Below are positions 345 through 59,116 of a stretch of 64,000 bases of DNA, one piece after another. Numbering within the stretch: the first letter of the stretch is position 1; each line of letters begins with the position of its first letter. A program made the position numbers and the translations under genes. The DNA lies in contig CAMVUB010000003.1 of assembly GCA_947170495.1 (NCBI GenBank), positions 34,004 through 98,003 of the forward strand. Direction: 5' to 3'. This stretch comes from an uncultured Prevotellaceae bacterium (GTDB taxonomy: Bacteria; Bacteroidota; Bacteroidia; Bacteroidales; Bacteroidaceae). The notes below the pieces were generated by a model. It had not been told where the DNA came from, ran no database searches, and worked only from the letters and a program-made list of their open reading frames with translations.

Positions 345-890
345 CGTTACCCTCTACAGTGTCTGCGCGTAGTCTCTATAAAGAGTCAGGCGAGGGACTA
401 CTAGTGTCTTTTGTGTAGCCATAGAATTAGTTTTGCGGAAAACCCTATGAGCCCTACGCACACGGGTAGGTGAATCGGCGTCGGCGACTTGCAGGATTGT
501 GACGGAGGGATGCGGTTTGCGTAGGGCTCATAGGGTCTTCGGCAAAACTTTTTTCTGAGGGACGCGTCGCAACGGCATTTACGACGCATCGTAACGGTTC
601 GAGGGACGCGTCCTTATTGCTTTTCTCACGCGTGAGAAAAACTGGAAGACCGCGGTGCATTGAGTGTTCCACCATGGTGGTCCAGTTGGAAGAGCGCGGT
701 GCGTTCGTTGTTCGGTCGCGATGGAACAATGAGAAGACCATGGTCTTCGGGTCATAACCCTTAAGGGTTTTGGCCGAAAGGCTTAAGGGTTATGAGGAAA
801 AGCCTTAAGGGTTGTGATGGAAGAAGTAAGAAGTAAGATGTATGAGGGAAGAAGGAAGAGGGAAGAGGGAAGAAGGAAGAGATTTAACGA
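345..890 (+). repeat. Palindrome-rich composite intergenic array, copy 1
   Basis: Ordered modules: cctctacag/gtctgcgcgtag/gcgaggga; ccctacgca inverted repeat; GACGCGTC; TTTTCTCACGCGTGAGAAAA; CCACCATGGTGG; GAAGACCATGGTCTTC; AACCCTTAAGGGTT; purine tract with gatgtatgaggga. Inverted counterpart at 57676-59014. Confidence 0.8.
429..549. repeat. 32-bp inverted repeat (arms 429-460 and 518-549)
   Basis: agttttgcggaaaaccctatgagccctacgca vs reverse complement of tgcgtagggctcatagggtcttcggcaaaact, two mismatches. Confidence 0.85.
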
Positions 891-21786: not shown

Positions 21787-22968
21787 TTAGAGCACGCCCT
21801 TGCTGGAGGGCAGCTGCATGTGGTGGATATCACGGCGCACAGCCATGCGCAGGGCACGGGCAAGGGCTTTGAAGATGCCCTCAATCTTGTGGTGCTCGTT
21901 CTGACCTTCGGCCTTGATATTCAGGTTCATGCGGGCGGCATCACTCAGACTCTTGAAGAAATGCAGGAACATCTCGGTAGGCATCTCCCCTACCCGCTCG
22001 CGATGGAACTCGGCGTCCCAGACGAGCCAGGGGCGTCCGCCGAAGTCGAGGGCGACGCTGCAGAGGCAGTCGTCCATAGGCAGGGTGTAGCCGTAGCGCT
22101 CGATGCCACGCTTGTCGCCGAGGGCCTTGAGCAACGCCTCGCCCAGGGCGAGGGCGGTGTCCTCGATGGTGTGGTGTTCATCGACGTGCAGGTCGCCCTT
22201 CACGCGGATGTCCAAGTCGATGGCGCCGTGCTTGGCAATCTGTTCGAGCATGTGGTCGAAGAAGCCGAGGCCCGTGGAGATCTGGCTCTTGCCGGTGCCG
22301 TCAAGGTTCACGCTGACAGCGATATCCGTCTCCTTCGTCGTACGCTTCACCGTCGCCGTCCGCACCCCAGCATACACAAGCTCGGCAACTTGTTGCCAAG
22401 AATGGACAATGGACAATTGAGAGGTAACCACCCTCCCCCCCCTAACAGGGGAGGGGTCGGGGGTGGGGCCTATTATGACCGCTTTACATCCAATATTCTT
22501 AGCCAGCTGCGCATCGCTCTCGCGATCGCCGATGACGTAGCTGTTGGCGAGGTCATAGGAGCCGTCCATGTATTTCGTGAGCATGGCGGTGCCCGGCTTA
22601 CGCGTGGGCAGGTTGTCTTCGGGGAAGCTGCGGTCGATGAGGATGTCGTCGAAGGTGACGCCCTCGCCATCCAGAATCTCCAGCATCAGGTTATGTGTGG
22701 GCCAGAAGTCTGCTTCGGGATACGAGGGTGTACCAAGCCCGTCCTGATTGGAGACCATCACGAAGCGGTAGTCGGTATGCTGACGCAGGAAGCGCAGGGC
22801 GCTGATGGCTCCCGGCAGGAAGTGGAACTTCTCGAAGGAGTCTATCTGTTCGTCGACAGGCTCACGCAGGATCGTGCCGTCGCGGTCGATAAAGAGAAGA
22901 CCCACCCCCGACCCCTCCCGTGAAGGGAGGGGGGAGGGCTGGCGCGTAGATTCATTATTTTTCGACAT
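21787..22968 (-). CDS. hisB: Bifunctional histidinol-phosphatase / imidazoleglycerol-phosphate dehydratase
   Basis: 393 aa; [62 protein letters not shown]. Repeat-derived peptides at the N-terminus and in the interdomain linker. Confidence 0.95.
22429..22470. repeat. GC-rich palindromic repeat, in frame in the hisB interdomain linker
   Basis: ccaccctcccccccctaacaggggaggggtcgggggtgggg; encodes [14 protein letters not shown] on the minus strand. Confidence 0.8.
22900..22940. repeat. GC-rich palindromic repeat, in frame at the hisB N-terminus
   Basis: acccacccccgacccctcccgtgaagggaggggggagggct; encodes [17 protein letters not shown]. Confidence 0.85.
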
Positions 22969-23016
22969 TTCGATATTTCGATATTACGTTATTACGAAGA
23001 AAGTCACCCCGCAGGT

Positions 23017-23052
23017 CTCCCCTCCCTTCACGGGAGGGGTTAGGGGGTGGGT
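23017..23052. repeat. GC-rich palindromic repeat at the hisC 3' end
   Basis: ctcccctcccttcacgggaggggttagggggtgggtc; hisC ends RPTP* inside it. Confidence 0.85.
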
Positions 23053-24140
23053 CTGTATTGTCTTAACGCCCCAAGTAATGCATTGTTCTCCTGCGGGGTG
23101 CCAATGGTGATGCGGAGGCAGTTACCGCAGAGCTGCACACGGGAACGGTTGCGGACAACGATGCCGCGGTCGATGAGGTAGTGATAGATGCCGTCGGCAT
23201 CCGTCATGCGGGCCAGGAAGAAGTTGGCATCCGTGGGGTACACGGCCTTGCAGATGGGCAGCTCGGCCACGGCGGGCAGCAGCTGCTCACGTTCGCGCAG
23301 GAGCGTGGCACGCCAGTACTGCACCTGCTGGATATCGGCCAGCATCTTCATCGCCTGCTGCTGGGTGAGCGCATTGATGTTGTAGGGATATTTCACCTTG
23401 TTGAACAGCGCGATGATCTCCTCGGAGGCGAAGGCCATACCCAGTCGGATGGCAGCCGAGGCCCACAACTTGGAGAACGTATTGAGGACGATGAGGTTGG
23501 GGAAACGGTCGAGGTCGAGGCGGAAGGGACGCGCGTCGTTGAAGTCGCTGTAAGCTTCATCGACGACCACGATGCCCTGGAACTCCGTGAGGATGCGCTC
23601 GATGGCCTTGCGGTCGAGGGCGTTGCCCGTGGGGTTATTGGGCGAGCAGAGCCAGATGACCTTGGTGTGGTCATCGCAAGCCGCCAGCAGACGGTCTGCA
23701 TCGAGCGAGAAGTCGTCGTTGAGGGGCACGGCGCGATATTCCACATCGTTGACGTCGGCACAGACACCATACATGCCGTAGGTGGGAGCGATGGCCACCA
23801 CGTTGTCCTGTCGCGGCTCGCAGAAGATGCGATAGACGAGGTCGATGGCCTCGTCGGAGCCGTTGCCCAGGAAGATGCGGCTAGCGGGAACCTCCTTCAC
23901 CACCGACAGCTTCGCCTTCAGCTCTTCCTGCAAGGGGTCAGGATAGCGGTTGAAGTTGGCGTTGTAGGGGTTCTCGTTGGCATCGAGAAACACATTGGCC
24001 GCACGACCTTTGAACTCATCGCGCGCACAAGAGTACGGCGTGAGGGCAAGGATGTTCTTGCGAACTAGCAGACCCACCCCCGACCCCTCCCGTGGAGGGA
24101 GGGGAGAGGGCTGGAGCGTAGATTCTATATCTTTATTCAT
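23040..24140 (-). CDS. hisC: Histidinol-phosphate aminotransferase
   Basis: Fold-type I PLP features [57 protein letters not shown]. Start at MNKDIEST preferred. Confidence 0.93.
24071..24114. repeat. GC-rich palindromic repeat, in frame at the hisC N-terminus
   Basis: gacccacccccgacccctcccgtggagggaggggagagggctgg; encodes [17 protein letters not shown]. Confidence 0.85.
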
Positions 24141-24185
24141 ACTTGGAAAATATCTAATAGAAAAAGAGAGACTCGAGGACTGAAA

Positions 24186-24222
24186 CTCCCCTCCCTTCAC
24201 GGGAGGGGTTGGGGGTGGGTCT
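24186..24222. repeat. GC-rich palindromic repeat supplying the hisD C-terminus and stop
   Basis: tcccctcccttcacgggaggggttgggggtgggtctt; hisD ends LKTHPQPLP* in the repeat. Confidence 0.85.
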
Positions 24223-25534
24223 TCAGCCTTACCGTCATCGCATTCTTATGCGCATCGAGCTGCTCGGCGGCAGCCATGAGCTCCACGGAACGGCCGATGC
24301 TCTGCAGGCCTTCGGGCGTAATCTTCTGATAGGTAATCTTGCGACAGAAGGCATCGAGGTTCACGCCGCTGTAGGCGGTAGCGTAGCCGTTGGTGGGCAG
24401 CGTATGGTTGGTACCCGAGGCGTAGTCGCCAGCGCTCTCAGGAGTGAGATGTCCGATGAAGACGCTGCCGGCATTCACCACGCGCTCCGCCAGCGCTTCG
24501 GCATCGGCGGTCTCGATGATGAGGTGCTCAGGGGCATAGCGGTTGCTGATGGCGAGGGCCTCGTCCGTGGAGGACACGAGCACGAGGCGGCTGTTCTCGA
24601 GGGCGGCAGCGGCGATGTCCTTGCGTGGCAGCAGGGCTAGCTGACGGGCGACCTCTTCCTGCACAGCAGCGAGCAGCGCTTCGGAGGTGGTCACGAGGAG
24701 CACCTGGGAATCCACGCCGTGCTCCGCCTGCGAGAGCAGGTCGGCAGCCACGAAGGCGGGGTTGGCCGTAGCGTCGGCGATGACCTCCACCTCGCTGGGG
24801 CCTGCGGGCATGTCGATGGCGACATCAGCCAGCGACACGAGCTGCTTGGCGCATTGCACATACTGGTTGCCGGGGCCGAAGATCTTCGACACCTTAGGCA
24901 CCGACTGCGTGCCGTAGGCCATAGCACCGATGGCCTGAACGCCACCTGCCTTGAAGACCTTGGAGACACCAGCGATGCGGGCAGCCACGAGGATGGCGGG
25001 ATGCACGCTGCCGTCCTTGCTGGGGGGCGTGCAGAGCACAATCTCGCTACAGCCAGCGATGCGGGCAGGCGTGGCCAGCATCAGCACGGTAGAGAACAGG
25101 GGTGCTGTGCCGCCGGGAATATAGAGTCCCACCTTCTCGATGGGTACGCTCTTCTGCCAGCAGCGCACGCCGGGTGCCGTCTCCACCTCGATGCCAGCAT
25201 AGCGCTGGGCGCTGTGGAAGCGGGCGATGTTATCGTGGGCCAGCTGCAGGGCGGCTTTCAGCTCTGCGCTGACGAGCGACTCGGCACGCTCGAATTCAGC
25301 GGGGGTGACGGCAAGGGGACTGACGGCTGCGTCAGTTGCCTTGGCACGGCAACAAACGGAACGCAGATCGACTTGGTCGAACTGCTGTTCGTAGTCGAGC
25401 ACGGCTGCATCGCCCTCTGCCTTGATGCGGGCCAGCACGGCCGACACGAGGGCTGTCAGGTCTTTGGCATCCTTCGTGGGTCGCGTGATGATCTCCTTCA
25501 GCGCCGCCTCATTCGGATTTTTATAAACTAACAT
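24197..25534 (-). CDS. hisD: Histidinol dehydrogenase
   Basis: 445 aa; [67 protein letters not shown]. Confidence 0.95.
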
Positions 25535-25546
25535 AGCTATTTCTTC

Positions 25547-25582
25547 ACTCCCCTCCCTTCACGGGAGGGGTCGGGGGTGGGT
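25547..25582. repeat. GC-rich palindromic repeat between hisG and hisD
   Basis: actcccctcccttcacgggaggggtcgggggtgggt. Confidence 0.85.
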
Positions 25583-25585
25583 CTA

Positions 25586-31605: not shown

Positions 31606-31745
31606 TTTATGGTTTATGGTTGAAGGTTCAAAAGTTCAAGGGTTCAAGAAGTTCAAGGGTTCAAAAGTTCAAGGGTTCAAGAAGTTCAAGGGTTCAAGGA
31701 CTAATCTTTAATCTCTAATCTTTAATCTTTAATCTTTAATCTTTC
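31606..31745. repeat. Intergenic oligonucleotide repeat tract
   Basis: gtttatggtttatgg, repeated (aag)ttcaagggttcaa, then repeated taatctttaatc. Confidence 0.8.
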
Positions 31746-32656
31746 CTCCTAAAGAGGAATCGTATCTTCTTCCCCGCAACGAGGAGGGTGACGGCACCAA
31801 GGATGAGGACGATGCCGATGCAGATGCGAACGGTCAGCGTCTCACCAAAGACGAGTACACCGATGACGAGGGCCGTAATGGGCTCCAAGGCACCGAGAAT
31901 GGCAGCCGAGGTAGAACCGATATAGTGGATGCTCAGGTTCATGGTCACCAGCGAGATAATCGTCGGGAACAGTGCCAGACATACGAGGTTCACCCACAGC
32001 CATGGGTTATGGGGCGTCTGCAGGGCGAAGGAGAAGGAGGCAGCGTCGAGGTCGATGCCCGTGAGACGGATGACATAGAGGCTGGAGCCGAAGACGAGGG
32101 CCCAAAAGGTCAGCGTCGTAGATTCCATCTTCTTCAGCACGGAACGGTTCACGCCCACAATATATACCGCGTAGCTGAGCGACGACAGCAGCACCAGCAC
32201 CACGCCGATGGTCGATAGCGGCGCATCGGGTTTGCCGCGATAGAGCAAGGCGATACCCACGGAGGCCATTGCGATGCAGACCCATGTCAGGATGCTGGCC
32301 CTCTCATGGAAGACGAGCCACATGATCAGCGCCACGAGCAGCGGGTAGGCAAAGAGTATCGTGGAGGCGATGCCGGCGTCCATATACTGATAGCTGAGGA
32401 ACAGCAGCAGCGACGAGGCGCTGAAGACGATGCCCATGAGCGCCAGCGACAGCAGCTCGCGACGCCGCAGCCGGAAGCTCTTGCCCTGCACCAGCATCAG
32501 CGCTCCCATCATCAAAATAGCGAAGGCATAGCGGTAGAAAAGCATGGAGTCGGCTGTCATGCCGTCGGCATACAACGGCAATGCAAACAACGGATTCAAG
32601 CCGTAGCTGGCAGCAGCGATACTGCCGAGGGTGACACCTTTAACCTTGATATTCAT
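31736..32656 (-). CDS. EamA/DMT family transporter
   Basis: 306 aa, about 10 TM; SIAAASYGLNPLFALPLYADGMTADSMLFYRYAFA; TSAAILGALEPITALVIGVLVFGETL. Confidence 0.9.
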   Translation of the reverse strand: MNIKVKGVTLGSIAAASYGLNPLFALPLYADGMTADSMLFYRYAFAILMMGALMLVQGKSFRLRRRELLSLALMGIVFSASSLLLFLSYQYMDAGIASTILFAYPLLVALIMWLVFHERASILTWVCIAMASVGIALLYRGKPDAPLSTIGVVLVLLSSLSYAVYIVGVNRSVLKKMESTTLTFWALVFGSSLYVIRLTGIDLDAASFSFALQTPHNPWLWVNLVCLALFPTIISLVTMNLSIHYIGSTSAAILGALEPITALVIGVLVFGETLTVRICIGIVLILGAVTLLVAGKKIRFLFRRKD

Positions 32657-45680: not shown

Positions 45681-47141
45681 TTACTCCGCCAGCCACTGTT
45701 CCATACGCTCGTATCTGCGTTTGTGCCAGAGGCGGGCAATCCAGCGGATATAGAGGGTGTGGAGGGCGAAGCCGAGGATGCCGAGGGCGGCGACGAGGGC
45801 GTGTGCCCAGAGAACAGGGAGAAAGAAGTAGGCGACGTAGTAGATGACGAGAGGAATGAACATGATGAACGAGAAGACATTCAGCTGTTTGTTGCCACCT
45901 TGATAGTTGAAGAAGGCGGAGGCGAAGAGGTCCATCCGGCTGCTGAAGAGGCAACTCGCCATGAACGGCAAGATGAAGAAGCCGCAGGAGAAGAGCAGCG
46001 CAGCCAGCAGCGCCAGCGGCGACAAACCATTCCACAGCACGGCAGGGATCAGCAGGAGTGTCATGAGGCCGCAGAGTGCGCAGAAGAAGTAGTACTTGCG
46101 TCGCAGGATCCCCTCAACGGGCCACGGCTTTGTCCATATGCCGGAGAAGAAGTTGGCCTCGATGCCCAGCACCCACTGCGCCAGGATAAGGCTGGGGAAT
46201 CCCACGGCGAAGACGAGCATCGGGTTGACCTTCAGGCCGAGGTCCTGTTGCATCGTGTCGTCTGTCATCTGTTGCATATAGACGTTGAAAACGAAGAGGA
46301 CAGCCATCACCAGGAAGCTGGTTCTCAAGCGCTTGCTGCGCAGCAGCTGCACCCATTCGATGCTCCACAGCGACACCTCGCCCAGCGAACGTGCCGTGGT
46401 GGCCACGGGCGCGTGTTCCTCCTCGTTGTGGTTCTTCATACGGGCAAAATAGCGATGCAATACGTAGCACAGGAGGCTGTTCAGCACTATGATGACGCCC
46501 GAGGCCACCACTGTGCCCCACTCCACCACATGAGGCCGCAGCGGCATCGAGGGATCGTCCTCTGCCAGCCCCAACACCACGAAAGCGAGGCCTCCAAGAA
46601 CATAGAGCACGAAGACCCACACAAGATAGCCGAAGGCCAGCGGCAGCGTGTATTCATTGCCGGGTGCGCGACGCCAGCAGTTCTGCACCAGCGCATTGGT
46701 GAGCGTGCAGGTGAAGGCCAGCACGAGGGTGAGCAAGCCCCAACCAATGCCTATGAACAAGGCCGCCACAAAGCCCACACACAGCGGGAGCATCCATTGC
46801 ATCGTACTCAGCTTCGTGTCGATGAGCACGAGCAGCGCCCAGTCGCTGGCGCTGACGGGGCGCGAGCGCAGGTAGTCGTCCATCTCCACCGGTGAGCGAC
46901 GCCAGAAGAGTTTCATGAACATATCGGCCGGAACGATGCTCACGGCCAGCAGCGGTACCAGCGCCACGACGGCAAACGGCAGCTCCTTCTCAGCCAGCTC
47001 CGAGGAGACAGCGGTGTAGAACGCCACCACCATCGTGATGAAGAGCACCGCAAAGTAGGCGGCGATGAAGACGTCCTTCCAGTGGAACGCGCGCCGCTTC
47101 TGTGTCCACCACAGCCTTAAGAGTTCTTTAAATGCAGCCAT
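45681..47141 (-). CDS. ABC transporter permease-like polytopic protein
   Basis: 486 aa with many TM segments, next to the ABC ATPase. Confidence 0.75.
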   Translation of the reverse strand: MAAFKELLRLWWTQKRRAFHWKDVFIAAYFAVLFITMVVAFYTAVSSELAEKELPFAVVALVPLLAVSIVPADMFMKLFWRRSPVEMDDYLRSRPVSASDWALLVLIDTKLSTMQWMLPLCVGFVAALFIGIGWGLLTLVLAFTCTLTNALVQNCWRRAPGNEYTLPLAFGYLVWVFVLYVLGGLAFVVLGLAEDDPSMPLRPHVVEWGTVVASGVIIVLNSLLCYVLHRYFARMKNHNEEEHAPVATTARSLGEVSLWSIEWVQLLRSKRLRTSFLVMAVLFVFNVYMQQMTDDTMQQDLGLKVNPMLVFAVGFPSLILAQWVLGIEANFFSGIWTKPWPVEGILRRKYYFFCALCGLMTLLLIPAVLWNGLSPLALLAALLFSCGFFILPFMASCLFSSRMDLFASAFFNYQGGNKQLNVFSFIMFIPLVIYYVAYFFLPVLWAHALVAALGILGFALHTLYIRWIARLWHKRRYERMEQWLAE

Positions 47142-47301
47142 CTCTAATCTTTAATCTCTAATCTTTAATCTTTAATCTCTAATCTTTTTCCGCGGCAAAG
47201 GTAGCACTAATTTTTGTTCTATTTGGCCAATGAATCGTTAAAACCTCTTAAAGGCAATAAACCAACGGGGACGCGAAGGGTCTTTTTTACTGAAAACACC
47301 G

Positions 47302-48680: not shown

Positions 48681-48689
48681 ATGATGAGA

Positions 48690-48721
48690 CCCTCCCCCTG
48701 CCCTCCCTGTGAGGGAGGGAG
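48690..48721. repeat. GC-rich palindromic repeat
   Basis: ccctccccctgccctccctgtgagggagggag. Confidence 0.75.
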
Positions 48722-48784
48722 CGTTTACCTTTCAAGATTAAAAATTATATGTATAACATCTTATAAAAGATTAATTATTTCATT

Positions 48785-49984
48785 ATGAATATTTTCAATT
48801 TCACGAAACATTTTACTCCCTCCCTCACAGGGAGGGCGGGGGGAGGGTCCGTCATTCTCTTAGCGTTAGCTTTTACAGCTTGCGGCTCGAAGCCGACGGC
48901 TGAATACGAAATGACCACGGTAGAGAAAGGTAATATCTCTACGACCGTGACAGCCACAGGAACCATCGAGCCTGTCACGAGTGTGGAGGTGGGTACACAG
49001 GTCAGCGGTATCGTAGCCAAGATTTATGTGGATTACAATTCCGTGGTGAAGGCCGGACAGGTCATTGCAGAACTCGACCGCACGAACCTCCTCAGCACCC
49101 TCGAGAGCCAGCGCGCCAACCTCACCAGTGCCGAGAGCGCCCTCGCCTATCAGAAATCCAACTTCGAGCGTTACAAAGCCCTCTACGACAAAGGCCTGAT
49201 CAGCGCCAATGACTTCGAGCAGGCACGCCTCTCCTATGTCCAGGCACAGCAGCAGGCTTCTACAGCCCGCCAAAGCGTGAAGCGCGCCGAGACAGACCTC
49301 GGCTACGCCACCATCACCTCGCCCATCAACGGCGTGGTGCTCTCCAAGGCTGTCGAGGAAGGTCAGACCGTGGCCGCCTCGTTCTCCACTCCTACCCTCT
49401 TCACCATCGCTCAGGACTTGACCGATATGCGCGTGATTGCTGATATCGACGAGGCTGACATCGGCGAGGTCAAGGAAGGCCAGCGCGTCACGTTCACCGT
49501 GGATGCCTTCCCCAACGACACCTTCCAGGGTCAGGTCACGCAGGTGCGCCAGCAGGCCACCACGGAGAGCAATGTCGTCACCTACGAGGTGGTCATTAGC
49601 GCTCCCAATGCCGACCTGAAGCTGAAGCCGGGGCTGACCGCCAACGTGACCATCTTCACGCTGGAGAAGAACGATGTCCTCACCGTCAGCGCCAAGGCCC
49701 TGCGCTTTGCACCCAACGAAGTGCTCATCGCCGAGGACGAGACCATCGAGGGCTGCGAGGCTCCCCATAAGCTGTGGGTTCGCCAGGGCAAGACCTTCAA
49801 GGCCATCCCTGTGGAGACGGGCGTCACCAACGGCACCACCACCGAGATAGTCTCGGGCATCGCTGCCGGCACGGAAGTGCTCGAAGACATGGAGTTCGGC
49901 GGTGCCGCGGAGGATGCTTCTGCCCAGCAGAACAAGAACCCGTTCATGCCCGGACCGCGTAACAACAAGAACCAAAAGAAGTAA
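48785..49984 (+). CDS. Efflux periplasmic adaptor (MacA/HlyD-like) with repeat-derived signal region
   Basis: 399 aa; GTIEPVTSVEVGTQVSGIVAKIYVDYNSVVKAGQVIAELD; TITSPINGVVLSKAVEEGQTV. Confidence 0.92.
   Translation: MNIFNFTKHFTPSLTGRAGGGSVILLALAFTACGSKPTAEYEMTTVEKGNISTTVTATGTIEPVTSVEVGTQVSGIVAKIYVDYNSVVKAGQVIAELDRTNLLSTLESQRANLTSAESALAYQKSNFERYKALYDKGLISANDFEQARLSYVQAQQQASTARQSVKRAETDLGYATITSPINGVVLSKAVEEGQTVAASFSTPTLFTIAQDLTDMRVIADIDEADIGEVKEGQRVTFTVDAFPNDTFQGQVTQVRQQATTESNVVTYEVVISAPNADLKLKPGLTANVTIFTLEKNDVLTVSAKALRFAPNEVLIAEDETIEGCEAPHKLWVRQGKTFKAIPVETGVTNGTTTEIVSGIAAGTEVLEDMEFGGAAEDASAQQNKNPFMPGPRNNKNQKK
48816..48850. repeat. GC-rich palindromic repeat inside the adaptor signal region
   Basis: ctccctccctcacagggagggcggggggagggtcc; encodes PSLTGRAGGGS. 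Confidence 0.8.
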
Positions 49985-50733
49985 TGGAGAAGAAAGTCGT
50001 CATCGAGCTTCAGGATGTCCGTCGCGATTTCCAAGTAGGTAGCGAGACGGTGCACGCCCTACGGGGTGTCTCGTTCAAGATCTACGAGGGCGAGTTCGTG
50101 ACCATCATGGGCACCTCCGGTTCTGGCAAATCGACGCTCCTGAACCAGCTCGGCTGTCTGGACACGCCCACGAGCGGCGAATACCTGCTCGACGGCACCC
50201 CCGTGCGCTCCATGCGCCGTAGCCAGCGCGCCCGTCTGCGCAACCGCAAGATCGGTTTCGTGTTCCAGAACTACAACCTGCTGGCCAAGACTACGGCCAT
50301 CGAGAATGTGGAGCTGCCGCTGATGTATAACAAGGAGTACAACGCCCGCCAGCGTCGCGAGGCTGCCATCGCAGCCCTCGAAGCGGTGGGACTGGGCGAC
50401 CGTCTGGAGCATAAGAGCAACCAGATGTCGGGCGGTCAGATGCAGCGTGTAGCCATCGCACGCGCCTTGGTCAACAACCCCGCCGTCATCCTTGCGGACG
50501 AGGCCACGGGTAACCTGGACACGCGAACCAGCTTCGAGGTTCTTGTGCTGTTCCAGAAGCTCCATGCTGAAGGGCGCACCATCATCTTCGTGACCCACAA
50601 CCCCGAGATTGCACAATATTCCTCACGCAACATCGTCCTGCGCGACGGCAAGATTCGCGAGGATGTCTATAACCAAAACATCCTCAGCGCTGCCGAGGCC
50701 CTCGCAGCCCTGCCCGCGCCACAAGATGATTAA
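49984..50733 (+). CDS. MacB-type ABC transporter ATP-binding protein
   Basis: 249 aa; GTSGSGKSTLLNQLGCLDTPTSGEYLLDG; SGGQMQRVAIARALVNNPAVILADEATGNLDT; TAATG overlap with the adaptor gene. Confidence 0.94.
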   Translation: MEKKVVIELQDVRRDFQVGSETVHALRGVSFKIYEGEFVTIMGTSGSGKSTLLNQLGCLDTPTSGEYLLDGTPVRSMRRSQRARLRNRKIGFVFQNYNLLAKTTAIENVELPLMYNKEYNARQRREAAIAALEAVGLGDRLEHKSNQMSGGQMQRVAIARALVNNPAVILADEATGNLDTRTSFEVLVLFQKLHAEGRTIIFVTHNPEIAQYSSRNIVLRDGKIREDVYNQNILSAAEALAALPAPQDD

Positions 50734-50735
50734 AG

Positions 50736-50770
50736 GCCCCTCCCCCAACCCCTCCCCTGTTAGGGAGGGG
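50736..50770. repeat. GC-rich palindromic repeat
   Basis: gcccctcccccaacccctcccctgttagggagggg. Confidence 0.8.
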
Positions 50771-50828
50771 AGTTGAAACCTTGAACTTTTGAACCCTTGA
50801 ACGCTAAACGCTAAACGTTAAACGAGAT

Positions 50829-53433: not shown

Positions 53434-53514
53434 TGTTTAGAGATTAGAGATTAAGGATTAAAGATTAAAGATTAAGGATTAAAGATGTATTTGAGAATGC
53501 TAAATATTGAAGTC

Positions 53515-57674: not shown

Positions 57675-57978
57675 ACTGTTTCCCCTCATCCCTCATCCAT
57701 CATCCCTCATACATCATCCATCTACCATAATAACCCTTAATGCTTTTTCTCATAACCCTTAAGCCTTTCGCCCGAAACCCTTAAGGGTTATGACCCGAAG
57801 ACTGCGGTCTTCCAACGTGTCCCACGCGTGGAACTCGCAATAAGGACGCGTCCCTCGGGCCGTTACGACGCGTCGTGTGAAAAACAGGGTCTTGTCGCAC
57901 AAAAAAACGCCGAATCATCGAAAAGCCTACACCTCGCGCAGAATCCTCGCAACTACCATGAAAGTCAACTCGTTATCT

Positions 57979-58115
57979 TGCGCAGTCCCCTACGCAACCT
58001 CGCGCAACCCTGCGCAACCCTACACGCAAGATGAACCTCCACTGGTTCAGCACTCGCCCAACTAGGGTGCGTGACCTTGCGCAAGGTTGCGCGAGGTTGC
58101 GTAGGGTTGCGCGCG
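57979..58115. repeat. Long imperfect inverted repeat of GCGCAACC units
   Basis: Arms about 57979-58028 and 58067-58115 around a small gaacctccactggttc hairpin. Confidence 0.8.
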
Positions 58116-58291
58116 CCGCAATCTACTGTATAGCAGCCAATTGCAGCCATTTTGCGCGAGGTGTGGGGTTTTAAGCTATTTCCTGAAAAATCAGCAGCGC
58201 AGTACGAAGGCGATTGCACCGCGGTGTGTTGGCCGTTGCACTACGCTCTGATTCTTCCCTCTTCCATCTTACAGCCTACATCATCCATCGT

Positions 58292-58410
58292 TCACTCCCA
58301 ACCCTCCTCATCATTGCTGTCCATATAGCGACTCATGCCGTTGTCGTCCATGTCATCCTCTGATGCAGGATCGAAGTGGCGCATGCCAATATGATGAGTC
58401 CTCGCTTCAT
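58292..58410 (-). pseudogene. Frameshifted small lipoprotein-like gene
   Basis: MKRGLIILACATS, then in the next frame DPASEDDMDDNGMSRYMDSNDEEGWE*; N-term nucleotides match 58725-58765. Confidence 0.45.
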
Positions 58411-58556
58411 GGTTCTATACATTACTATATATGCTGTCGTTAGTATCATAAAAACGGTACCATGTATGCTGGTAGCATAATGGTTTCCTGGTCTTTTGCA
58501 AAGTCTTTGAGATAAATCAGATATCGCCACAATATTCTGGACGAATAAATACGTTT

Positions 58557-58757
58557 TTACGCTGCAAGGATAGAGAAAAGAAACAATCCCCACAAAATTA
58601 TTTTTACAAAAAACGACAATCCCCACAAAAAAATACTAATTGGATTTATACATTCCCCATAGATCTGATCCATAGAATCCTGCTCTGCCGTTTGCGTCCT
58701 CCCTCCACATGACAGCAGCAACAGCGCCGCTGCCAATATGATGAATCCTTGTTTCAT
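58557..58757 (-). CDS. Small lipoprotein-like ORF, likely relic paralogue of 58292-58410
   Basis: MKQGFIILAAALLLLSCGGRTQTAEQDSMDQIYGECINPISIFLWG...; lipobox LLSC. Confidence 0.4.
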   Translation of the reverse strand: MKQGFIILAAALLLLSCGGRTQTAEQDSMDQIYGECINPISIFLWGLSFFVKIILWGLFLFSILAA

Positions 58758-58797
58758 TGTCCTATACCTATATATTACGGGTCCAGCAGAAGGTGAT

Positions 58798-58888
58798 TTG
58801 CACTTTTGCACTCATCCTTGCACGCATCTTGCACGCTATTATCTAGTCGGATGCAAATGAGTTACGGGCAAATAGTGCAAAAGTGCAA
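58798..58888. repeat. 15-bp perfect inverted repeat TTGCACTTTTGCACT / AGTGCAAAAGTGCAA
   Basis: Arms 58798-58812 and 58874-58888 with further TTGCACG copies between. Confidence 0.85.
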
Positions 58889-59011
58889 GAAAACGGCCGA
58901 ACAACCAACGTCGTGCGTCCTTCTTTTAAAGACACTACTACTCCCTCGCCTTACCCTCTATAGTCCCTACGCGCAGACACTATATACGCTTCGCTTAGGA
59001 ACTATAGAGGA

Positions 59012-59116
59012 TAACGTAGCCCATATCGTTTCATCCTTAATCACAACCTGCACCCTGCCTTCCTCATCGGGCAATTGGTACAATATGAATGTATCTCGCT
59101 GTTCATCTTTTATCAA
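59012..59116 (-). pseudogene. Truncated RhuM-family N-terminus
   Basis: (TTG)IKDEQRDTFILYQLPDEEGRVQVVIKDETIWAT resembles the intact RhuM N-term MIEDKGQILLYQTPDGESRIEVRLQGETVWLS; similarity stops where the composite array begins. Confidence 0.65.

What the first reader, a model, noticed from the sequence alone, without database searches (positions are those of the whole stretch)
345..890. Composite array of ordered short perfect palindromes, repeated in inverted orientation about 57 kb away
Within 550 bp are several distinct perfect palindromes: GACGCGTC (561-568), GGACGCGTCC (604-613), the 20-mer TTTTCTCACGCGTGAGAAAA (621-640), CCACCATGGTGG (669-680), the 16-mer GAAGACCATGGTCTTC (733-748) and AACCCTTAAGGGTT (756-769). 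A 32-bp inverted repeat and a purine tract flank them. The same modules occur in the same order on the opposite strand at 57676-59014. No feature in the window explains an ordered mosaic of unrelated palindromes. It could be a non-coding mobile element, a structured RNA or a protein-binding array.
Basis: seen in the sequence. Interest (0 to 1): 0.85.

Follow-up and report, generated by a model that had tools for sequence, protein, structure and literature searches.

The report
Intergenic repeats of 22-bp phased palindromes
The cluster of odd palindromes is one of at least 42 scattered copies of a non-coding repeat in this rumen-type Bacteroidales genome, and its seemingly unrelated palindromes turn out to be units of one hidden lattice spaced exactly 22 bases apart, a design that related species repeat with different palindromes.

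Summary
All ten perfect palindromes of 6 bp or more at 545-830 lie on one lattice with centres at 564.5 + 22n, none off it. Copies differ from each other by whole units: 34 of 45 indels are exactly 22 nt and 4 are 88 nt. Symmetry co-varies, including the central dinucleotide, which a hairpin loop could not pair. The genome holds at least 42 dispersed, intergenic copies in fixed module order (52 of 56 adjacent module pairs), rarely between divergent genes. Across 139 genomes of the genus ACGCGT pairs occur 269 times at spacing 22 against 22 at spacing 23 (sums mine); other species use other palindromes on the same spacing. This genome and most of its genus carry divergent, long RAYT-like HUH transposases; here three of about seven such genes have array modules within 350 bp. 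Best explanation: a REP/BIME-like dispersed element of 22-bp dyad units, growing and shrinking by unit slippage, probably spread with RAYT help (inferred; most RAYT loci of the genus lack arrays). New variant of a known kind; 22-bp phasing was not found described in the held literature.

The parts
349..411 (+). Module A: in better preserved copies CTATAG-centred palindromes 22 bp apart (TACCCTCTATAGT...ACTATAGAGGGTA), then AGGCGAGGGAGTAGTAGTGTCTTT
   Evidence: 22-bp spacing of CTATAG centres in L127, L072, L250
429..549 (+). Module B: long stem-loop, arms 429-463 and 515-549 (35 nt, 91%)
   Evidence: replaced by another stem-loop B' in other copies (L068, L074, L137, copy 2), removed in L061
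553..830 (+). 22-bp lattice of palindromic units, centres 564.5, 586.5, 608.5, 630.5, 652.5, 674.5, 696.5, 718.5, 740.5, 762.5, 784.5, 806.5 (modules C1, C2, D, E); 10 of the 12 still perfect over at least 6 bp
559..620 (+). Module C1: units GACGCGTC / ACGACGCATCGT / GGACGCGTCC
621..640 (+). Module C2: perfect palindrome TTTTCTCACGCGTGAGAAAA; same slot elsewhere GTGTCCCACGCGTGGGACAC
641..750 (+). Module D: units ACCGCGGT, CCACCATGGTGG, GCGCGGT (decayed), TCGCGA, GAAGACCATGGTCTTC
751..830 (+). Module E: units AACCCTTAAGGGTT, CTTAAG, CCTTAAGG
831..883 (+). Purine tract (GGAAGA-type repeats); homology to gyrA-upstream DNA of relatives starts at 883-885, so this is the right-hand end of the element
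57683..57719 (-). Purine tract of copy 2
57720..57876 (-). Copy 2, 22-bp lattice part (E, remnant of D, C2, C1), centres include 57782.5 and 57870.5; lacks 88 bp (4 units) of D
57905..58170 (-). Copy 2, alternative stem-loop B' in the slot of B
58760..58910 (-). Copy 2, module G (inverted-repeat module, also in L066, L266, L267)
58927..59013 (-). Copy 2, module A

Best explanation
It is a dispersed, non-coding, intergenic repeat that works like a BIME/REP element. Its body is a tandem lattice of 22-bp palindromic units, each a dyad-symmetric site about two helical turns from the next, so that all dyads face nearly the same side of the helix. SHOWN: the 22-bp phase, gain and loss of whole units, co-varying symmetry, fixed module order, dispersal to at least 42 places, intergenic siting, species-specific palindromes on the same spacing across the genus. 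INFERRED: (1) units multiply and vanish by slippage or recombination between neighbouring units; (2) arms diverge but the dyad is kept because a dimeric or structure-reading DNA protein acts on the array; (3) copies reach new intergenic sites through the long RAYT-like HUH transposases of the genus, which process palindromes exposed as single strands, and afterwards serve as homology for rearrangement.
For: Lattice: spacing 22 has 69 palindrome pairs, 44 has 53, 66 has 39, median of other spacings 4; 19 arrays at period 22 against 0-1 at every other period from 15 to 30. Unit-wise indels. Covariation 0.081 against 0.054 (sd 0.005) shuffled, 0 of 500; cells paired 74.9% against 33-51% when slid. 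Copies and order. Genus-wide 22 against 23. RAYT family: 26 of 26 members hit NCBIfam REP_Tyr_transpos; MPDHxH in 28 of 28; 96 of 139 genomes. Arrays by RAYT genes: C39, C51, C13, the G107 orthologue of C51 and G064. A G044 RAYT is flanked on both sides by a palindrome that has 7 sites in that genome.
Against: 28 RAYT loci of the genus taken as a set show no strict 22-bp array outside the own genome, although 11 of 28 have a hairpin nearby against 0 of 21 gyrA controls. Only 1 of 20 array neighbourhoods holds a RAYT. The G107 palindromes beside its RAYT are not dispersed. Module A-E orders spanning 450 bp look like copying of a long composite, which is longer than known REPINs. No clean empty site was found: the flanks are rearranged. 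Perfect centres without a loop are unlike classical REPs.
Confidence: 0.45

Rival explanations
1. Protein-binding array: the lattice is a cooperative binding platform for a dimeric, possibly fast-evolving double-strand DNA-binding protein (nucleoid, partition or insulating function), spread passively by recombination; RAYTs are bystanders.
For: 22 bp is about two helical turns; symmetry includes the central pair, which changes on both sides (GC to UA in 3 copies in helices 4 and 5, AU to UA in helix 9); spacing is conserved while sequence is not.
Against: Core sequences differ between units of one array (ACGCGT, CCGCGG, CCATGG, TCGCGA, CTTAAG), which a single sequence-specific protein would not read; patchy distribution with 0 to 43 sites per genome suggests selfish spread rather than a housekeeping function.
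Confidence: 0.25
2. Transcribed RNA hairpins at gene ends (terminators, mRNA stabilisers), as proposed for many REPs.
For: 13 convergent against 2 divergent sites; several copies start within 50 bp of a stop codon; B, B' and G can fold.
Against: No strand preference relative to the upstream gene (19 same, 17 opposite); no Rfam match; centre of the palindromes as symmetric as the arms.
Confidence: 0.12
3. Neutral palindromic minisatellite: tandem 22-bp slippage plus template-switch 'palindrome correction' with no function and no dedicated mobiliser, scattered by ectopic recombination.
For: Exact 22-nt and 88-nt indels; flanks of copies in G144 and G107 show changed gene order at the elements.
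Against: Does not explain why unrelated palindromes in different species keep the same 22-bp period or the fixed order of modules A, B and E around the lattice.
Confidence: 0.15
4. Classical MITE of an insertion sequence, like BrickBuilt of Porphyromonas gingivalis (tandem 23-nt bricks between terminal inverted repeats).
For: Dispersed, intergenic, tandem bricks of similar size (PMC4596501).
Against: No terminal inverted repeat or target-site duplication was noticed at the ends in the copies inspected (no dedicated search); bricks here are palindromic and heterogeneous.
Confidence: 0.03

Closest known systems
BIMEs / REPs (palindromic units) of Enterobacteria and Pseudomonas with RAYT (TnpA_REP) transposases
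   Same: Short intergenic palindromes in composite, ordered, dispersed mosaics; mostly between convergent or tandem genes; HUH REP-associated tyrosine transposase relatives in the genome, some with palindromes next to the gene
   Different: Units lie on a strict 22-bp lattice; each unit has a different palindrome; the centre is perfectly symmetric with no loop; no constant GTAG foot (only A, B, B' and the C51 array carry GTAG next to an arm); RAYTs are 340-480 aa with an extra C-terminal domain
Subclass 2.6 TnpA_Y1 (Bacteroidetes) of Quentin et al. 2018 (PMC6006769)
   Same: Bacteroidetes RAYT-like genes flanked by atypical secondary structures with copies elsewhere in the genome
   Different: Published motif NH[LIV]H and YIH[QN]NP, about 179 aa; here DHxH and Y[LVM]xxNP, 340-480 aa
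TIRtrons / TIRYT of Di Nocera et al. 2013 (PMC3733652)
   Same: RAYT-like genes with partly self-complementary repeats that form moderate repeat families
   Different: Not described as phased arrays; phyla differ
BrickBuilt MITE of Porphyromonas gingivalis (PMC4596501)
   Same: Intergenic element with tandem bricks of similar length, 19 copies in a Bacteroidales genome
   Different: 23-nt identical bricks; palindromes are not mentioned in the paper's text; IS-type terminal repeats

Membership tests
REP / BIME | Short palindromes, many copies, intergenic | tested here: met
   42 loci, 78 BLASTN matches
REP / BIME | Ordered composite of palindromes with other motifs | tested here: met
   52 of 56 adjacent module pairs in order
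REP (GTAG or CGTC tagged) | Unpaired GTAG or CGTC tag at the foot of a stem with a small loop | tested here: not met
   Most lattice units have no such foot and no loop; GTAG occurs only beside A, B, B' and in the C51 array
REP / RAYT system | RAYT gene present in the same genome | tested here: met
   About seven genes or fragments; sub-cutoff NCBIfam REP_Tyr_transpos, best 6.5e-14, all 26 members
REP / RAYT system | Cognate repeats flank the RAYT gene | tested here: inconclusive
   C39, C51, C13 in the own genome, G107, G064, G044 yes; most other RAYT loci no
REPIN | Two inverted REPs about 100 bp apart mobilised as one unit | tested here: not met
   Units are evenly spaced at 22 bp, not paired
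MITE / BrickBuilt | Terminal inverted repeats and target-site duplication | tested here: inconclusive
   None noticed in copies read by eye; no dedicated search was made
CRISPR array | Identical repeats with unique spacers of 20 nt or more next to cas genes | not tested
   The 22-bp units leave no room for spacers; cas genes were not searched for

The most novel reading that the evidence does not exclude
A new class of bacterial repeat, 22-bp phased palindrome arrays, in which only the dyad symmetry and the 22-bp period are under constraint while the sequence of each palindrome is free to change between units and species; it is read by structure or helical phase, and maintained by a RAYT fused to a DprA/SLOG-like single-strand DNA domain.
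Probability: 0.25. Interest if true: 0.85.

Novelty: new variant of a known kind. Interest (0 to 1): 0.64.

Why it matters
Why bacterial genomes hold families of extragenic palindromes, and what reads them, has been open since REPs were found. A family in which spacing and symmetry are conserved but sequence is not separates structure-based from sequence-based recognition, and offers natural replicates (dozens of arrays, several species, different palindromes) for a direct binding and transposition test.

Tried and rejected
Rfam scan: only a tRNA in the window. Segmental duplication as the sole cause: rejected, at least 42 loci. Canonical RAYT by Pfam cut-off: below cut-off in the own genome; found with a two-row profile. 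G123 RAYT-flanking repeat: a local repeat beside a tRNA, not dispersed. Clean empty site at gyrA: none of 29 relatives has modules there, but the upstream genes differ, so it is a breakpoint and not a clean empty site. A joined-flank query for empty sites was written but not run, since it could not be passed by reference. Random stretches of genus and order show no 22-bp lattice, so the lattice is not a general property of this DNA. Structure prediction of the RAYT was not attempted, because loci from the genome search are not on that tool's permitted list. Slot regular expressions were too loose for module D; only the C2, D-end and A slots were used.

Full report
WHAT IS THERE. Against 2000 Markov shuffles of the same 546 bases, palindromes of 12 bp or more number 4, mean 0.11, maximum 2. 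The inverted-repeat flank is the B stem-loop (429-463 / 515-549). A second, altered copy lies on the minus strand at about 57683-59013. The window is contig 3 of an unnamed 2.33-Mb, 79% complete draft genome. The closest gyrA relatives in the public species set are ruminant-associated Bacteroidales / Prevotellaceae metagenome bins.

THE HIDDEN RULE. In 545-830 every perfect palindrome of 6 bp or more is centred at 564.5 + 22n: ten on the lattice, none off it. The two empty slots (586.5, 696.5) hold decayed palindromes that are intact in other copies. Over 388 kb around the copies, palindromes of 8 bp or more form 69 pairs at spacing 22, 53 at 44 and 39 at 66, with a median of 4 at other spacings. 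Runs of three or more on a lattice number 19 at period 22 and 0-1 at every other period from 15 to 30. One of the 19, L062:6968-7056, has unrelated palindromes and may be chance. When copies are aligned, 34 of 45 indels of 5 nt or more in the lattice part are exactly 22 nt and 4 are 88 nt. Pairs of copies are not independent, so these counts reflect fewer events, but few have any other length. The 'unrelated' palindromes are therefore diverged units of a 22-bp tandem array.

SYMMETRY IS KEPT. On 13 copies (A3) the lattice pairing holds in 74.9% of cells against 33-51% when slid by 1-3 columns. The covariation score is 0.081 against 0.054 (sd 0.005) in shuffles, 0 of 500. The innermost dinucleotide changes on both sides in some copies (GC to UA, that is ACGCGT to ACTAGT). 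Adjacent bases cannot pair in a hairpin, so this fits a double-strand dyad or a palindrome-making process better than an RNA or single-strand hairpin. Among interior lattice units the centre is the most symmetric part (0.93, 0.84, 0.92, 0.92 for offsets 1-4; arms about 0.5). The arrays were found through perfect palindromes, which biases that profile; units not used as anchors give 0.65, 0.48, 0.65, 0.70, biased the other way.

COPIES AND ORDER. BLASTN of the element finds 78 matches in the genome. With module probes I count 42 loci in the regions fetched: 23 between tandem genes, 13 convergent, 2 divergent, 4 at edges. Six loci overlap short ORFs that are probably spurious. Of adjacent different modules, 52 are in the order A-(G)-B or B'-C1-C2-D-E and 4 are not; one of those 4 is only G placed before A, and another is a separate E about 500 bp away. 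Orientation relative to the gene ending next to the element is 19 same, 17 opposite.

RELATIVES. Long composites occur in G144 (90% identity) and parts in G107, G132 and G118. At least one site is shared by descent: C36 and G144:C18 align colinearly through the element, 93% over 4.9 kb. Others are not shared or differ in content. For example, the C1 array after a gene on C11 is missing after the orthologous gene in G107. The array beside the C51 RAYT is GGACGCGTCC x3 here, but GTTGACCCGTCAAC-like, still at 22-bp multiples, beside the orthologous RAYT in G107. Several elements sit where gene order changes between species; these are draft bins, so misassembly at repeats cannot be excluded. Upstream of gyrA none of 29 relatives has any module, and homology to the window resumes at 883-885, just after the purine tract.

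GENUS-WIDE. ACGCGT-N16-ACGCGT (period 22) occurs 269 times in 42 of 139 genomes; the N17 version (period 23) 22 times in 10 (sums are mine from the printed tables). The tool's reversed control, itself a palindromic core (TGCGCA), is also concentrated at 22 (42 sites in G098, 30 in G147; about 182 in all against about 46 at 23). Period-22 arrays built of GCCGCGGC, AACCGGTT, ATACGTAT and GTGTACAC turned up in gyrA loci that had been fetched without regard to arrays. Random stretches of the genus (361 kb) and the order (243 kb) show none. Of 20 array neighbourhoods in other species, 16 could be placed between two genes, 1 lay inside a 167-aa ORF and 3 were at edges. The pattern is therefore patchy and species-specific: same spacing, different palindromes.

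THE TRANSPOSASE LINK. The genome encodes a family of long RAYT-like proteins: C39 429 aa, C51 383 aa, C77, a decayed C36 gene, C28/C52 split across contig ends, C13 at a contig end, and a C12 fragment. All 26 aligned members hit NCBIfam REP_Tyr_transpos below its cut-off, and MPDHxH and Y-x-x-x-NP motifs are constant. Profile matches to solved ISDra2-type transposases are weak (E 0.014). 96 of 139 genomes have the family. Array modules lie within 350 bp of C39, C51 and C13. With about 42 elements among roughly 2000 intergenic regions (my assumption), three of seven would be unexpected at about 0.002; this is a rough estimate. A G064 array lies 230 bp from a RAYT, and a G044 RAYT is flanked on both sides by a perfect palindrome that has 7 sites in its genome. 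Against this, most RAYT loci of the genus lack a strict array and 19 of 20 array neighbourhoods lack a RAYT. I therefore hold the RAYT mechanism as likely but unproven.

NOVELTY. BIMEs and REPs, the Bacteroidetes TnpA_Y1 subclass 2.6, TIRtrons and BrickBuilt are the closest known. None is described in the texts read as a fixed 22-bp lattice of differing, loop-free palindromes, and the literature searches returned no such report; most subscription papers are not held, so this is not proof of absence.

STEPS SHOWN AND INFERRED. Shown: lattice, unit-wise indels, covarying symmetry, copy number, order, siting, genus-wide period. Inferred: mobility through RAYT, a protein or structure that reads the dyads, and any effect on neighbouring genes.

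Noticed in passing
L061:4335-5624, L062:3429-4580, alignment A2: The long RAYTs have a C-terminal domain of about 150 aa that resembles the DprA/SLOG Rossmann core (PDB profile hits to DprA E 0.09; hhalign to 24 DprA proteins E 0.006 against 0.17-0.41 for mismatched pairs). A HUH-DprA-like fusion would be new to me.
   Followed up: partly
G098 and G147 (no locus): TGCGCA pairs at spacing 22 occur 42 and 30 times, the same lattice with another core.
   Followed up: no
G135, G110, G130, G126: Genomes with 43, 25, 23 and 18 ACGCGT pairs at 22 bp; G130 also has 23-bp tandem ACGCGT repeats.
   Followed up: no
L127:5953-5990: 38-bp perfect palindrome GAAGAGCTAGGTCTTACGGCCGTAAGACCTAGCTCTTC upstream of the C13 RAYT.
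   Followed up: no
window 22433-25584, 50729-50772, 48688-48849: Second family of intergenic inverted repeats (CTCCCCTCCCTTCACGGGAGGGGTTGGGGGTGGG) at gene borders.
   Followed up: no
window 31687-31758, 47130-47201, 53441-53487: Intergenic 7-nt tandem repeats (TAATCTT and similar).
   Followed up: no
L265-L278 against own loci: Gene-order breakpoints between close species fall at the mosaic elements; could be repeat-mediated rearrangement or misassembly.
   Followed up: partly
L070:1-450 and L125:1-640: Contig ends C28 and C52 overlap by about 55 bp inside one RAYT gene, so the contigs probably join there.
   Followed up: no
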